Shown one piece after another: positions 50,073 through 64,000 of a stretch of 64,000 nucleotides of DNA. The position numbers were made by a program, and so were the translations under genes. The DNA is from Geitlerinema sp. BBD 1991-9 (GTDB lineage Bacteria; Cyanobacteriota; Cyanobacteriia; Cyanobacteriales; Geitlerinemataceae): the NCBI GenBank assembly GCA_001657325.1, contig LWRO01000024.1:1-64000 (forward strand). Direction: 5' to 3'. The notes under the pieces are model-generated. The model ran no database searches. It was not told the origin of the DNA and worked only from the letters and a program-made list of their open reading frames with translations. How positions within the stretch are numbered: position 1 is the first letter of the stretch; every line of letters starts with the position of its first letter.

Positions 50073-51077
50073 TTGAATCCATTGTTCGCTGTGAAGAATC
50101 AAGATAGTGGAAACTTCGATCGACGCGATCTTTCGACTTTAGAATTTGACAAATACCATCGGATCGATCGGGTCGATATTCGAGATTTGACCCCTCTAGA
50201 ATTTTTCGATCGATACCGAAAACCCGGCTTGCCAGTTATCTTACTCGGACTCGTTAACGAACCGGATTGGAGTCTCGATTATCTCTGCAAACAGCTTGGA
50301 GATCGAGAATTTTTATGTCGGTTTTACGGTCGAGATCGACAATCGATCGACAAACGACAATGGGACAGTATCGGCAGCGGGATTGAGGTACGACCCATGC
50401 TGTTTTCGCAATATGCTGAATTGATTCGATCGGGAGAAGCGCATCGCAACGATATTTATATGGCAAAATGCCCGATTCGAGACACACCTTTAGCGAGCGC
50501 GAAATCGCTACAGAGCTGGGGCGAGCGATTGGGATTCGATCGATCGGCCAGTGGCTTAAATTTCTGGATCGGTCCCGGCGGACACGTCGAAAGCTTACAT
50601 TACGATACGTTTGACGGGACTCTCGCACAACTCCACGGAAGCAAACGTCTCGTCTTGTTTCCACCTTCACAACTCAATAATCTCTATCCGTTTCCGCTCC
50701 TCAAACATTTAACGTGTGGCTTAAAACTGAGATCGTGGTTCAGTCAAGTTTATCCCGATCGACCCGATTTTGAAGCGTTTCCTCATCTCCAAGAAGCTTT
50801 AAAATACCGTTGCGAAGTTATTTTACAACCTGGGGAAGTGTTATATATTCCCGCTGGATGGTGGCACGAAGTGACCGCATTAGGAAACGAACTCGTCTGT
50901 TCCGTTAATCGTTTTTGGCGAGTCTCGCCCCCTTTAAGAACGCTGTTACAATGGAGTGCGTGGCGCACCTATTTGGGAATTGCGCTGTCGATGCCTTATA
51001 TGCTTTCTCAACTCGCTCTAGCCAGCTTAAAACCCAATCGTAAAGAATCGATCGAAAAAATCATGCGGATGTTTTGA
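50073..51077 (+). CDS. Cupin-like (JmjC-type) Fe(II)/2-oxoglutarate dioxygenase-like protein
   Basis: 334 residues from TTG 50073 (a GTG at 50091 is also possible). The iron site HxD is in ESLHYDTFDG and the distal His in PAGWWHEVTAL. GPGGHVE before the first His and the LFPPSQ turn after it are typical of the cupin_8/JmjC group. Family members hydroxylate proteins or RNA-binding partners. A hydrophobic C-terminal helix (ALSMPYMLSQLALASL) may touch a membrane. No obvious substrate is nearby. Confidence 0.82.
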   Translation: MNPLFAVKNQDSGNFDRRDLSTLEFDKYHRIDRVDIRDLTPLEFFDRYRKPGLPVILLGLVNEPDWSLDYLCKQLGDREFLCRFYGRDRQSIDKRQWDSIGSGIEVRPMLFSQYAELIRSGEAHRNDIYMAKCPIRDTPLASAKSLQSWGERLGFDRSASGLNFWIGPGGHVESLHYDTFDGTLAQLHGSKRLVLFPPSQLNNLYPFPLLKHLTCGLKLRSWFSQVYPDRPDFEAFPHLQEALKYRCEVILQPGEVLYIPAGWWHEVTALGNELVCSVNRFWRVSPPLRTLLQWSAWRTYLGIALSMPYMLSQLALASLKPNRKESIEKIMRMF

Positions 51078-51823: not shown

Positions 51824-52753
51824 CTACGATACAGATTGCCGTGCTTTTGCCTCCGATGTCTGCTGCTTGTTCAAGTGTCCGCCGAATTTTTGTAACTCAT
51901 ACAGTTTGACACCAATATGATATTCGTACTGACTTAACAAGCGACCGTAAATATATCCTGCTCGTCCGTCCAAAAAGCCCAGCCGAAACACGTAAAATAA
52001 CAGGAATCGCAAAAACGGTTTAAAGGGAAGGCGAACCCAGATTTTCTTCAAAAACCGCTTGCGCTGAACCGAATCCCCGAACAAGTTCGCGCCGATAGTT
52101 CCCGATTCTCCTTTCCCGAGCAACAGGTTGTAATAAACGCGGGCTTCCCAGTTCGAGTAACGATTGTGACGGGCTAACCAGTGGTAAATATCGCGAAAAT
52201 CGATATGTAGCATATCGTTTTTCAGATAACCTGCCTGACTGGGTAAAACCACGTGTTCGTGAACTTCGTTATCCCCTGTATTCGGAACGTCTTCTGTGTG
52301 CAAATTTTCGTAGCGCCCGAGTTTATGTTTGAACAAGCGTAAATTCCAATCGGGATATTTTCCACCGTGACGAATCCATTTGCCGAGAAAGAACACGCGA
52401 CGGTTGAGATAATAGCCATCACATTGGTTTTGTCGGATAACTTCGTCAATTTCGTCCCAAAGTTCCGGTGTAATGCGTTCGTCACAATCGACGATTAACA
52501 CCCATTCGTGACTGAACGGTAAGTTATCGAGCGACCAATTTTTCTTTTTCGGCCAGCCACCGTTAAAGTGAAATTGCACGACTTTCGCGCCGTAGCTTTC
52601 AGAAATTTCACAACTTCGATCCTCACTTTGAGAATCGACAACAAACACCTCATCGGCTCTAGAAACGCTTTCCAGGCAAGCGGGAAGGTTCGCTTCCTCG
52701 TTTTTAGCCGGAATGAGAACGGAAATGGGAACTTTCTGGCTCGGTGAAGACAT
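51824..52753 (-). CDS. Glycosyltransferase family 2 (WaaE/KdtX-type)
   Basis: 309 residues. GT-A fold with SVLIPAKNEEANLPACLESV, EVFVVDSQSEDRS and the metal DxD-like VDCDERITPELWDE. The segment RHGGKYPDWNLRLFK is typical of the WaaE/KdtX group that adds a hexose to lipopolysaccharide core or related glycans. The C-terminal part has one hydrophobic stretch (FKPFLRFLLFYVFRLGF) that may bind the inner membrane. It follows the GT2 gene upstream by 60 bases on the same strand. Confidence 0.9.
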   Translation of the reverse strand: MSSPSQKVPISVLIPAKNEEANLPACLESVSRADEVFVVDSQSEDRSCEISESYGAKVVQFHFNGGWPKKKNWSLDNLPFSHEWVLIVDCDERITPELWDEIDEVIRQNQCDGYYLNRRVFFLGKWIRHGGKYPDWNLRLFKHKLGRYENLHTEDVPNTGDNEVHEHVVLPSQAGYLKNDMLHIDFRDIYHWLARHNRYSNWEARVYYNLLLGKGESGTIGANLFGDSVQRKRFLKKIWVRLPFKPFLRFLLFYVFRLGFLDGRAGYIYGRLLSQYEYHIGVKLYELQKFGGHLNKQQTSEAKARQSVS

Positions 52754-53992: not shown

Positions 53993-54208
53993 TTACGCCA
54001 AGCAAAGGTCATTCGCAATTCGTACTCGCCCGCGCAATACCGAACGCAGGAGGCGGTTAGCCGAGCGACGGTCTTCTTCATTCAAGCTGTCATCGAGTGT
54101 AGCGGCCATGAGTCCGTAGCGATCGGCCAACGTTAAGCACCCTGTTTCTGTCACAGCAGCGAGAATTTCAGAAATTGCACCGGGGAGGAGTTGAACTTGG
54201 GGAAACAT
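53993..54208 (-). CDS. 71-residue protein, tandem paralogue 1, unknown function
   Basis: Starts at MFPQVQLLPGAI; the longer frame to 54394 is upstream sequence, not protein. Conserved with its neighbour: ETGCLTLADRYGLMAATLDD and EEDRRSANRLLRSVLRGRV. Soluble, mostly helical. I recall similar short cyanobacterial proteins but no function. Its own promoter-like upstream segment and terminator repeat those of the paralogue 441 bases away. Confidence 0.75.
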   Translation of the reverse strand: MFPQVQLLPGAISEILAAVTETGCLTLADRYGLMAATLDDSLNEEDRRSANRLLRSVLRGRVRIANDLCLA

Positions 54209-54352
54209 CGCATTGGTCTGAACTCGATACTTTGAGTATCTCCCCAAATCATTGAAATTACGGTGATGTGCTATGCCTCTCCTCCGTGATAATCCTAGTG
54301 TTTTGGGGTGACTGGAGAGAGACCGTGTTGGTGATTTCGATCGCATTTGCAA

Positions 54353-54380
54353 CAAAAACCCCCTGTCGTCACACAGGGGG
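54353..54380 (-). terminator. Terminator of the second 71-residue gene
   Basis: Minus strand: CCCCCTGT pairs with ACAGGGGG, followed by TTTTTG. It separates the two tandem paralogues, so each gene is an independent transcript. Confidence 0.85.
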
Positions 54381-54433
54381 AAGCTGAGGAACATCGCGTT
54401 AAAGGAAGAAATCTACAGGTCTTGAGTATCGAG

Positions 54434-54649
54434 TCAGCCCCCAGCAAGCTCGTCTACAACTTGCACGCGCCCACGCAGAACGGCTCTTAGGAGTCGGTTG
54501 GCGGAACGACGGTCTTCTTCGTCGAGGCTATCATCGAGGGTAGCCGCCATCAGCCCGTAGCGGTCAGTTAAAGTCAAGCATCCCGTTTCGGTGACTGAAG
54601 CGAGGATGTCAGAGATCGCACCAGGAAGGAGTTGGAGTTGAGGGAACAT
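54434..54649 (-). CDS. 71-residue protein, tandem paralogue 2, unknown function
   Basis: MFPQLQLLPGAI, then ETGCLTLTDRYGLMAATLDD and EEDRRSANRLLRAVLRGRV: about 80% identical to the protein at 53993-54208 and the same length. The upstream segments share a CTGAACTCGAT...AGTATCTC phrase (plus strand). The duplication unit is 441 bp and includes promoter, gene and terminator. The C-terminal residues differ (VVDELAGG against IANDLCLA). Confidence 0.75.
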   Translation of the reverse strand: MFPQLQLLPGAISDILASVTETGCLTLTDRYGLMAATLDDSLDEEDRRSANRLLRAVLRGRVQVVDELAGG

Positions 54650-55285
54650 AACGCTGGGCTGAACTCGATGGTTTCAGTATCTCTCTGGCCTCGAGAAAAT
54701 GCGGTGATTTACTCCGCGACACTCAGTAATTCTTGCGTGAATATACGGTGACAGCGTTTACTGCGGTATGGTGATGTGGAATAGGGGAGGGTTGTGATTT
54801 CGATCGCTCATCGATGGAGGATGTGACCACTGGGGCAATCAAATGCTGGGGAATCGATCGAAACTGGATTGAGAGTCATATCTTACTGTCATATTTTTAG
54901 AGCGTATTTTTAAATATCTATAAAAGAATGATTCGAGCGAAAACTCAAGGAAGACAAGTGGTTTTACGGGAGCGTAGTCTGGGATGAATTACGATCGCAT
55001 CGATATCAGATGGCTCAAAATTCCGATCTGCCAACAATCAACCCGCCTTACATTATGTCAAAAAACAGTTGAAGTCTGAATGTCTAAATATATCAACGCC
55101 GATTCAAAAATCACATCTCTGTTTCACGAACACAAATTGACTGAAATCGAAATGAAAACCGTCTCAAGAAAATTTCAATCGACTGTAGTTTCCCCAATCG
55201 ACATTTTTACTAACAGATAAGCTTCCTATTTTATCCACAAAAAACAGACATTCAAAAAGATCGAGTTCGACAGGTTAGTTTAACT
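54650..55285. other. Intergenic region upstream of the TPR-GT61 cluster
   Basis: 636 bases. No coding sequence is supported. TATAAAAG near 54920 is a possible -10 box. Composition falls to the AT-rich level of the cluster from about 54880. Confidence 0.4.
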
Positions 55286-57463
55286 GTGCAGTCTGACGCT
55301 CAAACTCAACAACTCGCTCATAAACACTACTTAGAGGGGAACGCTCATTTTAATGAAAATCGCCTTGAAAACGCAATTGAGTGTTACCAAAATGCCATTC
55401 TCTTACAACCAGATATCGCCGACTATCATTACAACCTCGGTAACACCTATTTTTCAAAACAGGACATCGATCGATCGATTCCTTGCTACCAAACCGCAAT
55501 TCAAAACAAATCCGATTTTGTCGAAGCTTACTTTAATCTCAGCCACGCTTACGAAATACAGCAAAAAATCGAGACGGCGATTCGAGGCTATCATCGAGTT
55601 ATCGCTTTCGATGCTGATTGTGTAAAAGCGTTCGATCGATTGGCAAAATTACAGCTTCAACAAGGGAACTTAGAAGAAGCGATCGAACACTATCAAACCA
55701 TAGTTCGACACGGATCGGATTGTATAAACTGTTACACACGCTGGTTAATCTCTTTAGAGAGCCAAGGAACGCTCGATAATTGGAGGCGAGATCGATTGCT
55801 GTTTATTCAAGATTTACAAACTCAAAATATATCATCTCAGATTTTCTTTTTTCTCGGCAATACTCTATATCGTCAGAACCTTTGGAATTTGGCGATCGAA
55901 GCATATCGACGGTCGATCGATCTCCAGCCAGATTTTTTCAAAGCTTATCGCACCTTGGGAACACTCTACAATCAATGTCAACAGCATCAGAAAGCGATCG
56001 AATGTTTAAAAACTGCTTTGCAACTTCAGCCAGGAAACGAGAAAATTTGCATTGAACTGGCACAAAGTTTTGCATTTTTAAAACACTATGATATCGCCAT
56101 TTCTCTGCTAAAAAAATTCATCAAAAACTATCCCAATGCTGCTGAAGTATCTTATTATTGCGGAAAATTACTATGGGTAACGTGCCGTTTCCAAGAAGCG
56201 ATCGAGCAATTTCGTCAGGCGGGAAGGCTAGAAACTTATCGGGGACGCGATGTTTTCAGCTTGGGAATTGCATTAGCGCAAGCTGGAAAAGTCGAAGAAT
56301 CTCTAGAAGCTTTAAATCCCCAGCAGCGTGTCTCTCCACCTCAAGGGTACTTCACTACAACTCGAGATTGGATGGTTTCTAAGGGATTAGAACATCGATA
56401 TCAAATCGTCAATTCCTCGTATTCCGTAGAACTCCAGCCTCCCCAAAACCTCGAAGCTGTGATAGGAGAAACATTTCAGTTTTCTGAAACGTTTGTCGCG
56501 GAAATTCCTGAAGGACGTGCGTATTGGAGTGGCGATGCGAGTCGCGACGATTACGCTAGTGCAGTAATTACGCCTGATAATTATTTTTTAGCAGATGTTT
56601 CGATCGATTTTACCGCCGTTCTCAATCCCACTCTCGATCGACATCCAAGTCAACACCGTCTTTTGAAAATGTCTAAACTCGCACCTATTGAAGAAATTGA
56701 CGGAACCGTTGCTGTTATTTCTCCAATTAACTGCGATAACTACTATCATTGGATGATATATTTACTACCACGATTACTACTCATAAAATCTATCAATATT
56801 GATTTGAACGAGATTGATATATTTTGGATGGACAGTTTCTGTAAATCTTTTCAAAAAGAAACATTTCAAAAACTAGAAATCCCCGAAACAAAAGTTTTAA
56901 CCGTCGATCGATCTCCTCATATTCGTGCTAAAAGTCTAATTGTTCCGTCACTAACTGGAAATTTATTTACTGTCGATCGAGCGTCTTGCCAACGGGTACG
57001 AGATTTGTTTTTGCCCGATCTTTGGAAAAACATTCCTCAAACGAAACGACTTTACATTCGTCGAAGCTTCAGCAAAAATCGCCGCGTTGTGGATGAAGAA
57101 AAACTTATTGGTTTTCTAGAGCAATATAATTTTGAGTCCGTCGAATTAGAGGGGCGATCGATTCAAGAACAAGTACAGCTATTTGCCGAGTCAGAGATCG
57201 TCATCTCACCACACGGTGCGGGATTAACCAACATCATATTTTGTCGTCCTCAAACAAAAGTTATTGAATTATTGCCACCGAATTATCCTCAAAAATTTTA
57301 TTGGATTTTAAGCACTCAATGTCAGCTTTTATATTATTGCTTAATGGAAGAAAATTTCGGTGTCCTCCACTTTGAGTCTGTTTTGTTGCCAAACGTCATG
57401 CAAGAAGATATTTGGGTAAATCCGGAGCGACTGCGAAACATCCTGAATTCAATACTATCGTGA
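55286..57463 (+). CDS. TPR protein fused to a GT61 (DUF563) glycosyltransferase, unit 1
   Basis: 725 residues from GTG 55286. About ten TPR motifs fill residues 5-350 (GNAHFNENRLENAIECYQNAI, LGNTYFSKQDIDRSIPCYQTAI). A linker TTTRDWMVSKG leads to a GT61 domain at about 380-725, with YHWMIYLLPRLLLI and SPHGAGLTNIIFC. GT61 enzymes are inverting sugar transferases. TPRs suggest protein or glycan partners. Lower GC and richer AT codons than the 1-50 kb genes. Units 2 and 3 follow on the same strand. Confidence 0.87.
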   Translation: MQSDAQTQQLAHKHYLEGNAHFNENRLENAIECYQNAILLQPDIADYHYNLGNTYFSKQDIDRSIPCYQTAIQNKSDFVEAYFNLSHAYEIQQKIETAIRGYHRVIAFDADCVKAFDRLAKLQLQQGNLEEAIEHYQTIVRHGSDCINCYTRWLISLESQGTLDNWRRDRLLFIQDLQTQNISSQIFFFLGNTLYRQNLWNLAIEAYRRSIDLQPDFFKAYRTLGTLYNQCQQHQKAIECLKTALQLQPGNEKICIELAQSFAFLKHYDIAISLLKKFIKNYPNAAEVSYYCGKLLWVTCRFQEAIEQFRQAGRLETYRGRDVFSLGIALAQAGKVEESLEALNPQQRVSPPQGYFTTTRDWMVSKGLEHRYQIVNSSYSVELQPPQNLEAVIGETFQFSETFVAEIPEGRAYWSGDASRDDYASAVITPDNYFLADVSIDFTAVLNPTLDRHPSQHRLLKMSKLAPIEEIDGTVAVISPINCDNYYHWMIYLLPRLLLIKSINIDLNEIDIFWMDSFCKSFQKETFQKLEIPETKVLTVDRSPHIRAKSLIVPSLTGNLFTVDRASCQRVRDLFLPDLWKNIPQTKRLYIRRSFSKNRRVVDEEKLIGFLEQYNFESVELEGRSIQEQVQLFAESEIVISPHGAGLTNIIFCRPQTKVIELLPPNYPQKFYWILSTQCQLLYYCLMEENFGVLHFESVLLPNVMQEDIWVNPERLRNILNSILS

Positions 57464-57545
57464 TTTGCAAATATTTAAAAATACGCTTAAAAATACACTG
57501 TTTTTGGACATTCGACTTAAAAACTCAACAAAAAACAAACTGATT

Positions 57546-58616
57546 ATGTCTCTCGCCTTGCACGCTTATCATCGATCGATCCAATCTGAATCCGAAAATG
57601 CCAGCGCTTATTACAAATTAGGGCAATGGCTCGATCGATCGAATAAATTGAGTGCAGCAACTCGCGCCTATGCTCGTGCAATTTGGCTCGATCGAGATGC
57701 TTATCCCTTTTCAATTTTGTTCGATCGAGCGTTAAACTTTCAGAAAATCAATAAGTTTGAACTTTCGATTGAATGTTACCGAGAGCTTCTCAAAATGCTG
57801 CCTCAAAGTTCTCGAATTCATTATAACCTCGGACAGCTATATCAAGAACGAGGAGACGATCGAAGTGCGATCTTGCATTTGCTTACAGCCATTCAATTGA
57901 ACCCCGATAACATTTCTCCTAGACTGCTTTATAAAATTGCCGATCGAAAAGCGCAACAAGGCTCTCTCAAAATCGCAGTTTCGCTGCTTGAAAAATTGCT
58001 TCAGTACCAACCCAACCGTGCCACGACGCATTACAATCTCGGACTCTTTCACCACAAAATTGGGAACCGCCAAGCAGAAACTCGATCTAAACTTCAAGCC
58101 TTCGCGCTCAAACCCGAAATTTTGCGAGATCGAGATTGGATTCAATTAGGAATTCATGCTTATCATCATCTCGGTGCAACCGTTGCACGTCAATTTTACA
58201 AAACAGCTATCGATCGATTCCCCGATAAGTTACACTTACAAATCGAGTATGGAATGATGTTAAATGCTCTTGGCGAACGAAATCGAAGTCAAGCTGTGTT
58301 TAAAAATGTTCGAGAGCGGCTTTACGAGTCTGTTCAAAACAATATCGAATTCGTTCGAGCCTTCGATCGATGGTATCGCTCTCGCTCTCAAAAAGTGATT
58401 GACGAGATAAGCCAACTGCGTCAAACTTTTTTAAATGAAATTGCAGTCGATCCTCACAGCACCGAAGCGCAAGTAGCTTTGTTGCCAATTCTTCATCAAT
58501 ACGAAGCCCAACTCGTCCCTCCGAAACGTCCGGTTAAAACGTCTAAAATACCACCGCTAACAGGAATGTGGACGAGTACGCGAGATTATCTTAATACTAT
58601 CGATCGATCGTCGTGA
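57546..58616 (+). CDS. TPR half of a split TPR-GT61 gene, unit 2a
   Basis: 356 residues from ATG 57546; the open frame to 57465 has no homologous start. About eight TPR motifs (ASAYYKLGQWLDRSNKLSAA, RIHYNLGQLYQERGDDRSAI). It ends with the linker motif TSTRDYLNTIDRSS and stops at TGA 58614-58616, just where units 1 and 3 continue into GT61. The last codons contain CGATCGATCG. The next frame starts at GTG 58613, overlapping four bases (GTGA). It is either a natural two-subunit form or a switched-off fusion. Confidence 0.8.
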   Translation: MSLALHAYHRSIQSESENASAYYKLGQWLDRSNKLSAATRAYARAIWLDRDAYPFSILFDRALNFQKINKFELSIECYRELLKMLPQSSRIHYNLGQLYQERGDDRSAILHLLTAIQLNPDNISPRLLYKIADRKAQQGSLKIAVSLLEKLLQYQPNRATTHYNLGLFHHKIGNRQAETRSKLQAFALKPEILRDRDWIQLGIHAYHHLGATVARQFYKTAIDRFPDKLHLQIEYGMMLNALGERNRSQAVFKNVRERLYESVQNNIEFVRAFDRWYRSRSQKVIDEISQLRQTFLNEIAVDPHSTEAQVALLPILHQYEAQLVPPKRPVKTSKIPPLTGMWTSTRDYLNTIDRSS

Positions 58617-59716
58617 TACATTCCACTCACGTCAGAAAAAAGATTCAACTGCGATCTCCCCACACTCTCGACGATCGAAACCATCCTCGATTCAATATTC
58701 TCAAGTATCGATCGCCGGAAACCTTCGTCGCCACAATTCCTGATGGTTACACGGTTTGGGGTGGAAACACCTCGATCGGATCTCGCGGTATTCTCGCCTG
58801 TATCACTCCAACTCGAGAACTTCTCGCCGACGTTTCACCTCGCTTTCCACAGCCAGATGTCGATTACACCTATCCTTCTCCACAAACCCACTGGGTATTT
58901 GACGTTCCGGCGTTACCCGATCTCGAAACATTTGGGGGAACCGTTGCGGTTCTCGCTGCATTTGCAGGCGATGTTGGAACCGCCAATTATTTTCACTGGT
59001 TTATCGATCTCGTTTCGCGAGTGGGTTTACTCCAGCAGGCGGGAATCGATTTACAATCGATCGATGGCTTTCTCGTCGATCGATTTAACCCCAATATTTC
59101 CTTTCAGCGCCACAGCTTAGACGTATTGGGAATTCCGACAGAAAAAGTTCTCAGCATTCACGAACATTCCCATCTTCAAGCTCAACACCTCATCGTTCCT
59201 GCAATTCCCGGAAAACTCACCTTCGCCTCCCAATTCACGGTTGATTTTTTACGAAATACCTACCGCAATCGATTCCGTCAAGCCGGTGTCAACTCTTCAA
59301 AACGGTTGTATATTACTCGTCAAAATGCTCAATATCGGCGAGTTCTCAACGAAGATGCTGTGTTGCAAGTGCTTCAGCCTTTGGGATTTACTTCGATCGC
59401 ACCCGAAACACTCAGTTTTCCCGAACAAGTCTCACTATTTTCTCAAGCTGAAGCCATTATCGCACCTCACGGTGCCGGGTTGACCAACATTGCGTTTTGC
59501 GAGCCTGATACAAAAATTATCGAACTGTTTCCCGCCGATTACGTGCTTCCGTATTACTGGATTCTCGCCAGTGAGGCGGAACTCAATTATTTTTATCTCG
59601 TCGGAAAAGGCATCGATTGCCCAAATTTGCATCGATTGGTGTATCCTAATTCGATGAATGCAGATTTGTTCGTTAATCTTGACGAACTTCGTCTTTTGAT
59701 ACAAAAAATATTTTAG
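58613..59716 (+). CDS. GT61 (DUF563) glycosyltransferase half, unit 2b
   Basis: 367 residues from GTG 58613, with no Shine-Dalgarno of its own, so translation probably depends on coupling through the GTGA overlap. NYFHWFIDLVSRVGLLQQAG and APHGAGLTNIAFCEPDTKII define the GT61 domain, close to unit 3 (EAELNYFYLVGKGIDC against EAELDYFYLVGKGIDC). The first 20 residues align with the linker of the fused units. The transferred sugar is unknown. Confidence 0.85.
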   Translation: MIHSTHVRKKIQLRSPHTLDDRNHPRFNILKYRSPETFVATIPDGYTVWGGNTSIGSRGILACITPTRELLADVSPRFPQPDVDYTYPSPQTHWVFDVPALPDLETFGGTVAVLAAFAGDVGTANYFHWFIDLVSRVGLLQQAGIDLQSIDGFLVDRFNPNISFQRHSLDVLGIPTEKVLSIHEHSHLQAQHLIVPAIPGKLTFASQFTVDFLRNTYRNRFRQAGVNSSKRLYITRQNAQYRRVLNEDAVLQVLQPLGFTSIAPETLSFPEQVSLFSQAEAIIAPHGAGLTNIAFCEPDTKIIELFPADYVLPYYWILASEAELNYFYLVGKGIDCPNLHRLVYPNSMNADLFVNLDELRLLIQKIF

Positions 59717-59717
59717 C

Positions 59718-61952
59718 TTGCTTTGGATGAGAATAGTGGACGACCAAAACCAGGACTTTTATCGAACATCTACTTCGTGCAATACATCAATCGATCGATG
59801 CAAACAAAAAATTTTAATAAATCCCGAAGATGCTGACAACTACGATCGATTAAGCAATCTCTATTTTGAATCCCAAAATTACGTCCTGGCTATTCGTGCT
59901 TACTGTAAATCTGTTACATTAAAGTCAAGCCAATACCTTCCAGAAAAATTGATAGATTGGTCGGTTGAGATCGCCCAAAATGGAGATTTTGATGCCGCTA
60001 TTTTGGGCTTACAGAAGGTGCTACTTTTTAACGATCGATCGGCTCTTGCCTGTTTTAATTTAGGTGAAATTTATCGACAACGATCTCAATTCGATCGAGC
60101 TATTAAATATTTATTAAAAGCTTTGTCCATTGATTGCAGTTTCTCAATTCAACCACTTAATAAAATTGCAATTTATTTTCATAAAAAGGGAAACACCCAA
60201 AAAGCAATTAAAATTTATGAAAATATTGCTACAATTAAAAACAATGATGGATTGATATGGTACAATTTGGCAATACTAAGCAAACAACTCAATCGAAGCA
60301 AACTGACGTTTGACTATTTTTTAAAAGCTTTCAATTACAAGCCAGAATTATTGAACGATCGAGATCTGATCGATCTTGGAAATGATATTCATGACAAAAT
60401 GGGAATTGATGCCTTAATTGACTTCAAGAAGAAAACCATCTTGATTCACTCCAACCATGCTCTTTCTTATGTCACTCTTGGGTCGATCTATCACGATCGA
60501 GGACTGCATTTAGAGTCTCAAAACTACTTTTTTGATGCCTTAAATCGATTGCAAGAATCGATTGAAAAATGCTCTAAATTTATTGCGATGTATTTGGGCT
60601 GGAGTGAAAGCCGAAATACACAAATTTCACTCGATCGAAAATCGATCGATCGAGCTGAACTCATCAAAGCAATCAAAGATTCGCCAGATTCCGAACAAAC
60701 CATCGAAATGCTCAAAACATTTATCGATCGAAAAGCAGAATCATCGATAAAATCTGAGTCGATCGATTCCGAGTCTGCAATCTCCCCCCCAGATGGCTTT
60801 CACGACAATACGCGCTCCTATGTCGAAGCATCCGGAGAAAGCCAGTACTTGGCCATTTCTCCCCCTCGTTCCGTTCACCTCAAGCCCGCTATTAGTATTA
60901 ATATTAATATTCCACCGAGCTTGAGTGTCGATCGATACGATTTACCCGAAACATTTGTCAGTATTATCGCCAACGGACGAGCGTGTTGGAGCGGAAACAC
61001 CAGTGTTAAAACCCTTCACGCCAGCGCCATTATTACGCCAGAAAACAAACTCCTGTCTGACGTATCGCCGAGCTTTCCGATTCCCATACTCTCAAAGCCA
61101 TTACCACCGCCCGATCGAAATTGGGTATTTCATATCGATCGACTTCCATCCTGTACCCAATTCGACGGTTCGATCGCGGTCTTAGCAGCCTTAGCCTCTG
61201 CGGAAGAAAAGCCATCTTCAAATTATTTTCACTGGCTCATCGACCTCCTTCCTCGTATTGGCTTATTACAACAAAGTGGAATTCACTTTGACGAAATTGA
61301 CTATTTTATCGTCGATACCCCTCTCACAGACTTTCAAAAAGATAGTCTTCTCGCTCTAGAAATCGATCTCGCAAAAGTCATTGATGTCAGTCAGTATTCC
61401 CACATCCAAGCGCAGCGTCTCATCGTTCCGTCGATCGCGGGAAAACTCACCCACGCTACGAAATGGAGTTGTCGTTTTCTAAGAACTGCATTCGTCCGAG
61501 CCTTTAAAATTGCGACAACAACTGCAAAAACACGATTGTATATCAGCCGAGATCGTGCAAAATACCGACGAATTCTCAACGAAGACGAACTCCTCGGAAT
61601 TCTCGAACCTCTGGGCTTTCAATGCGTGCGTCCTGAAACACTTTCTTTTGAGGAACAAGTCCGTCTATTTGCTAGTGCAGAAATCGTCATCGCACCTCAT
61701 GGCGCGGGACTGACCAACACTATATTTTGCGAACCCGGAACGAAGATCGTCGAAATTTTTTCACCGAACTATATCCTGCCCTATTTCCGAATTCTCGCCA
61801 GTGAAGCGGAACTGGACTATTTCTATCTCGTCGGAAAAGGCATCGATTGCTTGCACCTTCGATCGATCCTCTATCCCAACCTCATGACCGAAGATCTCGT
61901 CGTCGAGATCGACGATCTTCGCGCCCTGTTCGACCTCGCTGGGATCGCCTAG
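59718..61952 (+). CDS. TPR protein fused to a GT61 (DUF563) glycosyltransferase, unit 3
   Basis: 744 residues from TTG 59718; ATG 59727 is the likely start. TPR motifs span about 25-300 (CFNLGEIYRQRSQFDRAIKY). The linker has PPDGFHDNTRSYVEASGESQ. GT61 at about 400-744: NYFHWLIDLLPRIGLLQQSG and APHGAGLTNTIFCEPGTKIV. It is most like unit 2b. The TPR half is the most AT-rich part of the window, while the GT61 half is nearer average, which suggests different histories for the two halves. Confidence 0.87.
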   Translation: MLWMRIVDDQNQDFYRTSTSCNTSIDRCKQKILINPEDADNYDRLSNLYFESQNYVLAIRAYCKSVTLKSSQYLPEKLIDWSVEIAQNGDFDAAILGLQKVLLFNDRSALACFNLGEIYRQRSQFDRAIKYLLKALSIDCSFSIQPLNKIAIYFHKKGNTQKAIKIYENIATIKNNDGLIWYNLAILSKQLNRSKLTFDYFLKAFNYKPELLNDRDLIDLGNDIHDKMGIDALIDFKKKTILIHSNHALSYVTLGSIYHDRGLHLESQNYFFDALNRLQESIEKCSKFIAMYLGWSESRNTQISLDRKSIDRAELIKAIKDSPDSEQTIEMLKTFIDRKAESSIKSESIDSESAISPPDGFHDNTRSYVEASGESQYLAISPPRSVHLKPAISININIPPSLSVDRYDLPETFVSIIANGRACWSGNTSVKTLHASAIITPENKLLSDVSPSFPIPILSKPLPPPDRNWVFHIDRLPSCTQFDGSIAVLAALASAEEKPSSNYFHWLIDLLPRIGLLQQSGIHFDEIDYFIVDTPLTDFQKDSLLALEIDLAKVIDVSQYSHIQAQRLIVPSIAGKLTHATKWSCRFLRTAFVRAFKIATTTAKTRLYISRDRAKYRRILNEDELLGILEPLGFQCVRPETLSFEEQVRLFASAEIVIAPHGAGLTNTIFCEPGTKIVEIFSPNYILPYFRILASEAELDYFYLVGKGIDCLHLRSILYPNLMTEDLVVEIDDLRALFDLAGIA

Positions 61953-62001
61953 GCCTATAATTGGGTCGAACAGCAGCAAACCCGTCGTTTCCCATCGATT
62001 C

Positions 62002-63075
62002 ATGAAAGCACTGATTCTCTCCGGTGGTAAAGGAACCCGCTTGCGTCCGCTCACCTATACGGGGGCGAAACAACTGGTACCCGTCGCCAACAAGCCCATT
62101 CTGTGGTACGGCATTGAAGGGACTGTCGCGGCGGGGATTACCGACATCGGTATTATCATCAGCCCCGAAACCGGCGACGAAGTCAAAGCGCTCACCGGAA
62201 ACGGAGAGCGATTCGGTGCGAACATCACCTATATTCTGCAAGAAGAACCCGCCGGACTCGCTCACGCGGTTAAAGTCGCCCAACCGTTTCTCGGCGATTC
62301 TCCCTTTATCATGTACCTCGGCGACAACCTCATCGAGAACGACTTAACACCGTTTCTTCAAGCCTTCAAAGACCACCACCTCGACGCACTCATCCTCCTG
62401 CGTCCCGTCGAAAATCCCACAGCTTTCGGGGTTGCAAAGGTTGACGAAAGTGGGCGCGTCTTGCAACTGGTTGAAAAGCCGGAAGTTCCCCCCTCGAATT
62501 TAGCGTTAGTGGGGATTTACTTCTTCTCGCCTGGCGTTCACGAAGCCATCGAGCAAATTCAGCCCTCCGCGCGGGGTGAGTTGGAAATTACCGATGCTAT
62601 TCAAAACCTGATCGATCGATCTCAACCCGTCGAATCCCGCATCCTCGAGGGATGGTGGCTCGACACCGGGAAAAAAGACGATCTCCTAAGCGCCAACCAA
62701 ATTATCCTCGACTCGCAAATTCAAACCGTCATCGAGGGAGAACTCGACAGTGAAAGCCAAGCCATCGGACGGGTGAAAATCGGACGGGGATCTCGCGTCG
62801 TCAACTGCTCGATTCGCGGCCCCGTCGTCATCGGCGAAAACTGCTACCTTGAAAATTGTTTCATCGGCCCCTACAGTAGCATCGCCGACCGGGTGCGCTT
62901 GATTGATGTCGATCTCGAGCATAGTGTAATCTTGCAAGAGGCACGCATTGAAGGCATTCACCAACGGATCGTCGATAGCTTGATCGGTCGTCGCGCTCAC
63001 TTGGGAGCTGCCCGCCCGCGACCGAAAGCCCTACGGTTTATGGTGGGCGACGATTGCCAAATCGAGTTAGTTTGA
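62002..63075 (+). CDS. rfbA: Glucose-1-phosphate thymidylyltransferase, long form
   Basis: 357 residues. Nucleotidyl-transfer motif ALILSGGKGTRLRPLTYTGAKQLVPVANKP, with EEPAGLAHAV and the metal YLGDNLIEND. The C-terminal 110 residues are a left-handed beta-helix (IGRGSRVVNCSIRGPVVIGE), which marks the long, actinobacterial/cyanobacterial-type RmlA form. It makes dTDP-glucose for rhamnose and other deoxysugars. rmlB, C and D are not in the window. It follows the GT61 cluster by 49 bases. Confidence 0.93.
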   Translation: MKALILSGGKGTRLRPLTYTGAKQLVPVANKPILWYGIEGTVAAGITDIGIIISPETGDEVKALTGNGERFGANITYILQEEPAGLAHAVKVAQPFLGDSPFIMYLGDNLIENDLTPFLQAFKDHHLDALILLRPVENPTAFGVAKVDESGRVLQLVEKPEVPPSNLALVGIYFFSPGVHEAIEQIQPSARGELEITDAIQNLIDRSQPVESRILEGWWLDTGKKDDLLSANQIILDSQIQTVIEGELDSESQAIGRVKIGRGSRVVNCSIRGPVVIGENCYLENCFIGPYSSIADRVRLIDVDLEHSVILQEARIEGIHQRIVDSLIGRRAHLGAARPRPKALRFMVGDDCQIELV

Positions 63076-63092
63076 GAACCTCGCCCCTCGAT

Positions 63093-63593
63093 ATGGATTA
63101 CGAAACCCTCGATAAACCGAAACTCGTCCGACAGCTGCGCCGTACCCTCGCCCCGCGCATCGGAGTTGAAGACGCACCGCTCCCTGTGGGTGAATACGCT
63201 GCGATGTTGCAGGACGAGGACGACGAAGATTTGACCCTGTTGCGACACGGAACGGACATCTACAACATTCCCCTCCTCGTTCCGCGTCGATTCGGCTTTG
63301 TCTTGCTGACGTTGCGGAAAGTTTGGCGAAAAATCCTCAAGCCGATCTTGATGCGTCAGGTGGCCTACAACAGCGCTAATACACGGGTTATCGAAGGGTT
63401 GAACGGTCGCCTGTCTGGGGTGTATCGAGAAGCCGAGGACTTAAAACGACAACTCGACACGCAAATTTCCGAAACCACAGAACGCTATGAAGAGACGATC
63501 GATCGATTGCAACAGCAGATCGATCGACTCCAAGCGCTCCAACACCAACAAGCTCAAACCCTCGAAACGTTGCTGCGAGACTCGCCGCCATGA
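63093..63593 (+). CDS. Coiled-coil protein of the glycan region, unknown function
   Basis: 166 residues from ATG 63093 (MDYETLDKPKLVRQLRRTLA); the frame opens at 63054 inside rfbA. The first 100 residues are mixed and the rest a coiled coil (about 110-160, heptads around LKRQLDTQ and IDRLQQQIDRLQ). Similar N-terminal and coiled segments occur in larger glycan methyltransferases, but no transferase domain is present here. It starts 17 bases after rfbA and overlaps the next gene by four bases, so the three form an operon. Confidence 0.65.
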   Translation: MDYETLDKPKLVRQLRRTLAPRIGVEDAPLPVGEYAAMLQDEDDEDLTLLRHGTDIYNIPLLVPRRFGFVLLTLRKVWRKILKPILMRQVAYNSANTRVIEGLNGRLSGVYREAEDLKRQLDTQISETTERYEETIDRLQQQIDRLQALQHQQAQTLETLLRDSPP

Positions 63594-63928
63594 CTCATTG
63601 TCCCCGCTGCGATCGACCCGTTCCCACTGATGCCGTCTCCTGTCCTCACTGTCGCTATTCTCTCAAAGCTTTCGGACATCCCGGCATTCCGTTACATCGA
63701 GCGGCTAAAGACGAATTTCTCTGCAACAGTTGCGTCTACCATCACGACGACACCTGTAACTTTCCCCAACGTCCTAACGCCACCACCTGCACGCTCTATC
63801 AAAACCTCGACGAGTCGATCGAAGATCCGCTCCCACCCCGGAACAAACCCGTTCCTTGGTATCGGCGCTATCCCGCACTTTGGGTATTGCTCGCTTTGTT
63901 CGTGGTGAGTTTGCTATTGGCACTGTAA
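63590..63928 (+). CDS. Zinc-ribbon protein with a C-terminal membrane anchor
   Basis: 112 residues. An N-terminal CxxC-x(11)-CxxC ribbon (CPRCDRPVP, SCPHC) is followed by a second Cys-rich part (CNSCVYHHDDTCNFP, TTCTLY) that could hold another metal. One membrane helix (YPALWVLLALFVVSLLLAL) ends the protein, so it is tail-anchored with the ribbons in the cytoplasm. It overlaps the previous gene by four bases (ATGA). Function unknown. Confidence 0.75.
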   Translation: MTHCPRCDRPVPTDAVSCPHCRYSLKAFGHPGIPLHRAAKDEFLCNSCVYHHDDTCNFPQRPNATTCTLYQNLDESIEDPLPPRNKPVPWYRRYPALWVLLALFVVSLLLAL

Positions 63929-64000
63929 GCTCACCCCGGTCCAAAGATGCGGGGCTTTCGCACTAACCCGTTACACGATCTGGCAGGGAGCAAGATAGAG

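What the first reader, a model, noticed from the sequence alone, without database searches (positions are those of the whole stretch)
55286..61952. Three tandem TPR-GT61 glycosyltransferase units of low GC: an undescribed glycan system
Three homologous units (725, 750 split, 744 residues) lie head to tail next to a long-form rfbA, two GT2 genes and a gmd-GT4 pair further left. TPR fused to GT61 resembles the O-GlcNAc transferase layout (TPR plus transferase) but with an unrelated GT domain, so protein glycosylation with TPR-selected targets is a fair hypothesis. The AT-rich TPR halves suggest horizontal gain or domain shuffling.
Basis: partly seen in the sequence, partly recalled or inferred. 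Interest (0 to 1): 0.6.

Follow-up and report, generated by a model that had tools for sequence, protein, structure and literature searches.

The report
Three repeat-armed sugar transferases in cyanobacterium
A cyanobacterium carries three neighbouring enzymes that join a protein-gripping repeat arm to a sugar-transfer domain related to animal protein-glycosylating enzymes; the design proves to be common in filamentous cyanobacteria, where one branch sits beside a dedicated calcium-binding surface-protein gene that may be its target.

Summary
Three TPR-GT61 units lie head to tail at 55286-61952; unit 2 is two ORFs (383 + 367 aa) with a 4-base overlap. All three GT61 domains score far above Pfam's cut-off and keep the Asn-Arg-Arg and His residues that work in animal GT61 enzymes. 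The unit 3 model is a TPR superhelix of 18 helices followed by a POMGNT2-like GT-B domain. The array is not a recent triplication: unit 1 is closer to a Baaleninema gene (58%) than to its neighbours. It ends 49 bp before the genome's only long-form rmlA over cut-off. TPR-GT61 fusions are widespread in cyanobacteria, so this is not a one-off system. The main new result is outside the window: one TPR-GT61 clade, including this genome's own copy on contig C21, often sits right behind a small RTX gene with a shared C-terminal module, in several cases followed by TPR-methyltransferases or TPR-sulfotransferases. That suggests modification of an oscillin-like surface protein. The window array lies outside that clade and has no RTX neighbour, so its acceptor is unknown. 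Best reading: TPR-guided cytosolic glycosyltransferases acting on exported proteins, with a polysaccharide role the main rival. No activity is shown.

The parts
55286..57463 (+). Unit 1: TPR-GT61 protein, 725 aa (TPR about residues 14-310, GT61 486-660)
   Evidence: nearest relative L011 of G002 (Baaleninema simplex contig), 58%
57465..58616 (+). Unit 2, TPR half, separate ORF of 383 aa
58613..59716 (+). Unit 2, GT61 half, separate ORF of 367 aa; start overlaps the preceding stop by 4 bases
59718..61952 (+). Unit 3: TPR-GT61 protein, 744 aa; modelled TPR helices 21-341, GT61 fold 374-744
62002..63075 (+). Long-form rmlA (glucose-1-phosphate thymidylyltransferase), 49 bp after unit 3; the only TIGR01208 match over cut-off in the genome
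52814..53767 (-). GT2 glycosyltransferase on the other strand; nearby, not counted as part of the array
51824..52753 (-). GT2 glycosyltransferase on the other strand; nearby, not counted as part of the array

Best explanation
The array encodes three cytosolic glycosyltransferases in which an N-terminal TPR superhelix grips a polypeptide acceptor and a C-terminal GT61 domain of GT-B fold transfers a sugar from a nucleotide-sugar donor, by the donor-binding Asn-Arg-Arg triad and the acceptor-side His used by POMGNT2 and EOGT. They modify proteins bound for the cell surface before export, as the GT41 enzyme Ogt does with the pilin PilA in other cyanobacteria. Shown here: gene order, domain content, model fold (unit 3), conserved pocket residues, lineage. 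Inferred: cytosolic site, protein acceptors, donor (a dTDP-sugar is hinted at only by neighbouring rmlA and, in the nearest relative of units 2 and 3, rmlD), co-transcription with rmlA.
For: GT61 and TPR matches. The GT61 profile matches POMGNT2 (best E 1.6e-8) and EOGT (1.1e-7) among PDB sequences. Unit 3 model mean pLDDT 88.8; its GT61 part aligns to POMGNT2 7e9k_B at Z 18.8, rmsd 6.0, 290 residues; its TPR part to OGT and designed TPRs. N-H-R-R kept in all 3 units; over 128 GT61 domains His in 127, first and second Arg in 128 each, Asn in 22, set against the residues named in PMC13123520 (passages). A paralogous clade is linked to a dedicated RTX gene: 31 of 54 assessable TPR-GT61 loci against 0 of 7 without TPR; in a second, partly overlapping sample 10 of 41 against 0 of 35; control ORFs 4 of 482. 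TPR proteins next to RTX-linked TPR-GT61 genes carry methyltransferase, sulfotransferase, GT2 or MptE-like domains; TPR-GT41 and TPR-GT10 were seen beside TPR-GT61 loci without RTX. Precedent: Ogt, encoded beside pilA, is involved in PilA glycosylation (PMC12288463, passages).
Against: The array itself has no RTX ORF in the window and I noticed no pilin or other candidate acceptor gene beside it when reading the ORF lists; its three GT61 domains fall outside the RTX-linked clade. GT61 also contains polysaccharide enzymes (plant xylan transferases, per PMC13123520). Neighbours rmlA and GT2 genes fit polysaccharide work. The Asn of the triad is replaced in 106 of 128 relatives, window units included in the 128, so donor use in the wider family may differ from the animal enzymes. 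No biochemical evidence.
Confidence: 0.5

Rival explanations
1. The units are polysaccharide (exopolysaccharide or O-antigen) glycosyltransferases using dTDP-rhamnose or a related donor; the TPR arm docks them to other enzymes of the assembly line instead of to a protein acceptor.
For: rmlA 49 bp downstream is the genome's only TIGR01208 match over cut-off; the TPR-GT61 gene nearest to units 2 and 3 (L065, same protein as L007 of G003) overlaps an rmlD gene by 4 bases (TIGR01214 E 9.7e-107); two GT2 genes nearby.
Against: rmlA is the genome's only copy and may serve generally; its rmlD lies on another contig (C17); no flippase or polymerase was noticed among the window ORFs (read by eye); the solved GT61 members it resembles glycosylate proteins or O-mannosyl peptides; related enzymes are linked to RTX genes.
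Confidence: 0.35
2. The array is decaying: unit 2 is a broken gene and the low GC marks relaxed selection.
For: Unit 2 is split at the TPR-GT61 linker and the whole array is AT-rich.
Against: Units 1 and 3 are open over more than 2 kb each, the pocket residues are intact in all three units including split unit 2, and the two halves overlap by GTGA, as translationally coupled genes do.
Confidence: 0.08
3. The array acts in trans on the RTX protein encoded on contig C21, beside that locus's own TPR-GT61 enzyme (an alternative target within the best explanation, so its odds are not exclusive).
For: The genome holds the RTX-TPR-GT61 pair on C21, and that RTX is its only strong match to the linked-RTX module (1.0e-29; next 8.2e-10). 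The unit 1 relative in Baaleninema has an RTX ORF 965 bp upstream (HemolysinCabind).
Against: Different contig and clade; the Baaleninema RTX ORF lacks the module and one such neighbour can be chance.
Confidence: 0.12

Closest known systems
POMGNT2 and EOGT (animal GT61, endoplasmic reticulum)
   Same: GT61 domain, GT-B fold (Z 18.8 to POMGNT2), Asn-Arg-Arg and His residues
   Different: No TPR arm is described for those enzymes in the passages read; they are secretory-pathway proteins; sequence identity only about 17% to POMGNT2; donor and acceptor unknown here
OGT / SPINDLY and cyanobacterial Ogt (TPR-GT41)
   Same: N-terminal TPR superhelix followed by a GT-B transferase; TPR half matches OGT structures; the gene pairing of some relatives with a surface-protein gene resembles the Ogt-pilA pairing
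   Different: Catalytic domain is GT61, not GT41
RTX-linked TPR-GT61 clade of filamentous cyanobacteria (found here; own copy on C21)
   Same: Same TPR-GT61 architecture; unit 3 GT61 is 39% identical to the C21 one
   Different: Window units lie outside the clade and have no RTX neighbour; their triad has Asn where that clade mostly has Val
Oscillin / SwmA (RTX glycoproteins of cyanobacterial motility)
   Same: The linked genes encode RTX repeats, as these surface proteins, described as glycosylated, do (PMC3034196, passages)
   Different: The linked RTX proteins are smaller (211-474 aa complete, against 646 for oscillin); homology beyond repeats was not tested

Membership tests
GT61 (Pfam PF04577) | Domain score above the curated cut-off | tested here: met
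   103, 110, 126 bits against 27
GT61 (Pfam PF04577) | GT-B fold like solved members | tested here: met
   Unit 3 model residues 374-744 to POMGNT2, Z 18.8, rmsd 6.0, 290 aligned; units 1 and 2 not modelled
GT61 (Pfam PF04577) | Asn-Arg-Arg donor triad and acceptor-side His | tested here: met
   All 3 units; assignment by motif order and alignment, not by superposed coordinates
GT61 (Pfam PF04577) | Transferase activity | not testable with these tools
   Needs protein and assay
OGT/SPINDLY (GT41) | N-terminal TPR superhelix | tested here: met
   18 helices at 21-341 in the unit 3 model; TPR families in units 1-3
OGT/SPINDLY (GT41) | GT41 catalytic domain | tested here: not met
RTX-linked TPR-GT61 clade | RTX gene within 2.5 kb on the same strand | tested here: not met
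   No ORF of 90 aa or more with 2 or more RTX motifs in the window; met for the C21 copy
RTX-linked TPR-GT61 clade | Place inside the 48-row clade (SH-aLRT 100) | tested here: not met
   Units group with L011 and with L007 outside it; quick tree with long-branch warnings
Exopolysaccharide / O-antigen cluster | Flippase, polymerase or ABC exporter beside the transferases | tested here: inconclusive
   None noticed when reading the ORF lists; no dedicated search was made

The most novel reading that the evidence does not exclude
TPR-GT61 enzymes are a second, GT41-independent class of bacterial TPR-guided protein glycosyltransferases, and in gliding filamentous cyanobacteria one clade, with TPR-fused methyltransferases and sulfotransferases from the same gene cluster, builds the glycan on a dedicated oscillin-like RTX surface protein. 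The window array is an older side branch of the class with the full Asn-Arg-Arg triad and acceptors still to be found.
Probability: 0.35. Interest if true: 0.75.

Novelty: new variant of a known kind. Interest (0 to 1): 0.5.

Why it matters
If right, it gives a genetic handle on how filamentous cyanobacteria such as Microcoleus, Trichodesmium, Planktothrix, Arthrospira and Moorena sugar-coat surface proteins of the kind thought to guide gliding. The RTX review calls oscillin fibrils highly glycosylated. Of the 3 held papers with both 'oscillin' and 'glycosyltransferase', the one on cyanobacteria speaks in the passages I saw of slime (hps) glycosyltransferases, not of enzymes for oscillin, and finds no close oscillin homologue in its Phormidium strain. 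It would also show that the OGT design, a TPR arm on a transferase, arose with a second catalytic family.

Tried and rejected
Recent triplication: rejected, unit 1 is 58% identical to a gene of another genus and 41% to unit 3; units 2 and 3 are 50% identical. Recent horizontal gain: not supported (CGATCG density, older lineages). Gmd/GT4 pair as part of the system: rejected, 26 kb away. A type IV pilin link: Pilin_GH genes lie just after TPR-GT61 in L159 (568 bp) and L161, but only 1 of 41 by the rule (which missed L161), so left as anecdote. A split-versus-broken test of unit 2 by close relatives was not possible: none of the 38 other genomes is of the same genus. Promoter and terminator scans of 54600-64000 gave no more sites than shuffles (18 against 14.7; 8 against 9.7) and decide nothing. 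EOGT 9wjk does not appear in the fold lists shown, which says nothing against it. Papers on the TPR-GT61 fusion: searches gave 0 papers; the listings (2; 20 of 664 shown; 7; 20 of 55 shown) showed no title on it; this covers only the held open library, and apart from passages of one review those papers were not read.

The RTX rule (4 or more GG.[GDNA].D) misses some: L136 has a HemolysinCabind ORF just upstream, and L127's is on the other strand. Rows dropped for short upstream sequence or an open 5' end: 15 of 69 TPR loci and 3 of 10 others; 9 of 50 and 1 of 36 runs. In one search the window's units 2-3 run was counted as 'no TPR' because my home-made TPR profile is weak; the loci were picked by me's list (most long frames and about 20 short ones), not all. 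The two samples overlap: L152 and L110, L186 and L113 share the same DNA.
Full report
WHAT IS THERE. On the + strand, 55286-61952 holds a 725-aa ORF, a 383-aa ORF overlapping a 367-aa ORF by four bases (GTGA), and a 744-aa ORF, with one base between units as the ORFs are listed; rmlA-long starts 49 bp later. Pfam finds Glyco_transf_61 in all three units at 103, 110 and 126 bits (cut-off 27) and TPR families in each N-terminal part. Unit 3's TPR half is weakly detected by sequence, but the AlphaFold model (40 rows, mean pLDDT 88.8, pTM 0.77) shows 18 helices from 21 to 341 before the transferase domain. The genome has five GT61 genes: these three, a TPR-GT61 gene on contig C21, and a 404-aa one on C13 in which no TPR was found.

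THE CATALYTIC DOMAIN. A profile of four GT61 parts of this genome finds only POMGNT2 and EOGT among PDB sequences at E up to 0.01 (8 sequences, best E 1.6e-8). The model's residues 374-744 align to POMGNT2 7e9k_B with Z 18.8, rmsd 6.0, 290 residues; the next rows, matches to the TPR half, start at Z 14.7. The 2026 EOGT paper (PMC13123520; outline and passages seen) names N245, R372, R377 and H248 of EOGT, equal to N163, R294, R298 and H166 of POMGNT2. The window units have N-x-x-H and the two Arg; over 128 GT61 domains His is kept in 127, each Arg in 128, but Asn in only 22 (Val 49, Ala 23, Thr 15, Ile 8, Gly 7, others 4). The window units therefore keep the full set, while the RTX-linked clade mostly has Val. 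In the passages I saw, Proteobacteria are said to have Gly there. The first Arg is assigned by motif, since spacing differs; coordinates were not superposed.

HOW COMMON. GT61 occurs in 76 of 292 evenly drawn genomes of the phylum. A collection scan with the GT61 alignment gave 349 relatives, of which the best 79 loci were kept; 69 of 79 encode a TPR arm by my count (one, L065, added by hand on its Pfam hits), and tandem pairs are frequent. So the array is one case of a widespread protein type. Two relatives carry extra domains: Methyltransf_24 inside a TPR-GT61 protein (L070), FkbM methyltransferase (L104).

LINEAGE. In a quick tree of 128 GT61 domains, unit 1 groups with L011 of the Baaleninema simplex contig (support 99, 58% identity), units 2 and 3 with L007 of G003 (98), and the C21 copy falls in a 48-row clade (100). 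The program warns of long branches, one being unit 2 with L007. The array is thus of mixed, old descent.

THE RTX LINK. Reading flanks showed a small RTX gene just upstream of many TPR-GT61 genes; Pfam confirms HemolysinCabind in 5 of 5 such neighbours first tested (a sixth upstream ORF, in L066, is an S41 peptidase). By a motif rule, 31 of 54 assessable TPR-GT61 loci have an RTX ORF within 2.5 kb upstream on the same strand, 3 more (Moorena) only downstream, against 0 of 7 assessable loci without TPR; many of the 31 are close relatives around Microcoleus. In a second, self-picked set from the phylum scan it is 10 of 41 against 0 of 35; 2 of these 10 are the same DNA as loci of the first set. 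Fisher p is 0.0047 and 0.0014 and ignores kinship; other ORFs in the fetched stretches have an RTX gene upstream in 4 of 482 cases. The own genome has roughly 50 RTX frames in 5.98 Mb and a Microcoleus about 40 in 6.8 Mb (my count from the listed rows), so about 1% is expected. All 23 tree rows scored with the link fall in the 48-row clade; rows with clipped flanks cannot score, and one of these, the Baaleninema gene beside unit 1 in the tree (L011, the same gene as L099), does have an RTX ORF 965 bp upstream, so the link is not strictly confined to the clade. Against the link: 20 of 54 loci and 31 of 41 have no such neighbour by the rule. Of the 20, L126, L127 and L136 are inside the clade (L136 has an RTX ORF the rule missed; L127 one on the other strand), and G182 and G276 copies with an RTX-free upstream (L168, L169) are inside it too. 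The window array is among those without.

A DEDICATED PARTNER. Most linked RTX proteins share a C-terminal module ending in a short motif like F-E-L-F. With lineages left out in turn, the module model still finds all 14 left-out rows at E 1.3e-15 or better. It matches 45 of 51 linked RTX ORFs below 1e-5 (47 distinct sequences; 14 of them are rows of the model); of 13 unlinked ones 3 match, all extra copies in the same clusters. The six linked ORFs without it are Baaleninema (the same gene twice), L153, L174, L114 and L175. In 7 of 7 genomes searched, the best match (about 1e-29 to 1e-34) is the RTX gene beside a TPR-GT61 gene; the genomes were chosen for having the pair, and in four of the seven that gene is itself a row of the model. 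One Planktothrix (G276) has a further match (2e-21) not beside a TPR-GT61 gene known to me.

OTHER ENZYMES IN THE CLUSTERS. C-terminal parts of TPR proteins next to TPR-GT61 genes, ten selected by me, gave Methyltransf_24 (5), sulfotransferase (1), GT2 (1), GT10 (1), GT41 (1) and MptE-like (1); two more TPR-sulfotransferases came. The GT41 and GT10 cases (L119, L140) are in loci without an RTX gene.

MECHANISM. Cyanobacterial Ogt, whose gene is adjacent to pilA in many species, is involved in PilA glycosylation (PMC12288463, passages); that it is a TPR-GT41 protein is recalled. Oscillin and SwmA are RTX surface proteins, described as glycosylated, tied to gliding and swimming (PMC3034196, passages). 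By analogy TPR-GT61 enzymes of the linked clade likely modify their RTX neighbour, and the window units likely modify some other exported protein. The step from clade to window array is inference. The rmlA neighbour, and an rmlD neighbour in L065, hint at a dTDP-sugar donor, but this rmlA is the only one of the genome over cut-off and may be there for general use.

VERDICT. Real, open-framed and unusual in layout, but a member of a widespread protein type on which my searches found no paper; the surprise lies in the RTX-linked paralogues.

Noticed in passing
L145:879-4510 (own genome, contig C21): RTX gene (319 aa) followed about 117 bp later by a TPR-GT61 gene (851 aa): the genome's own copy of the RTX-linked pair.
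   Followed up: yes
window 53993-54208 and 54434-54649, minus strand: Two tandem paralogous ORFs of 71 aa each between the GT2 genes and unit 1; the longer ORF 53993-54394 that holds the first has no Pfam or NCBIfam match at 0.01.
   Followed up: partly
L159:5373-5888 and L161:5600-6115: Type IV pilin-like genes (Pilin_GH) right after TPR-GT61 genes in two genomes of another family; possible second kind of acceptor.
   Followed up: partly
L132:3322-10323 and L142:3201-9031: Two Heliobacterium species carry arrays of four and three GT61 ORFs in which my profile found no TPR.
   Followed up: no
L109:1316-6325, L113:4633-9807, L126:4759-9201, L133:4699-9192: Giant proteins of 1480-1724 aa, in Planktothrix and relatives, with TPRs on both sides of the GT61 domain (Pfam on L109 and L113).
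   Followed up: partly
L140:6925-9093 and L119:9142-11322: TPR fused to a GT10 fucosyltransferase and to a GT41 domain beside TPR-GT61 genes: the same arm is reused with several transferase types.
   Followed up: partly
G276:C1:1993307-1993591: A second RTX gene with the C-terminal module in a Planktothrix genome, not near a TPR-GT61 gene known to me.
   Followed up: no
window 50073-51077: Cupin_8 / JmjC-like protein (E 1.3e-39), a type that includes protein hydroxylases (function recalled).
   Followed up: no
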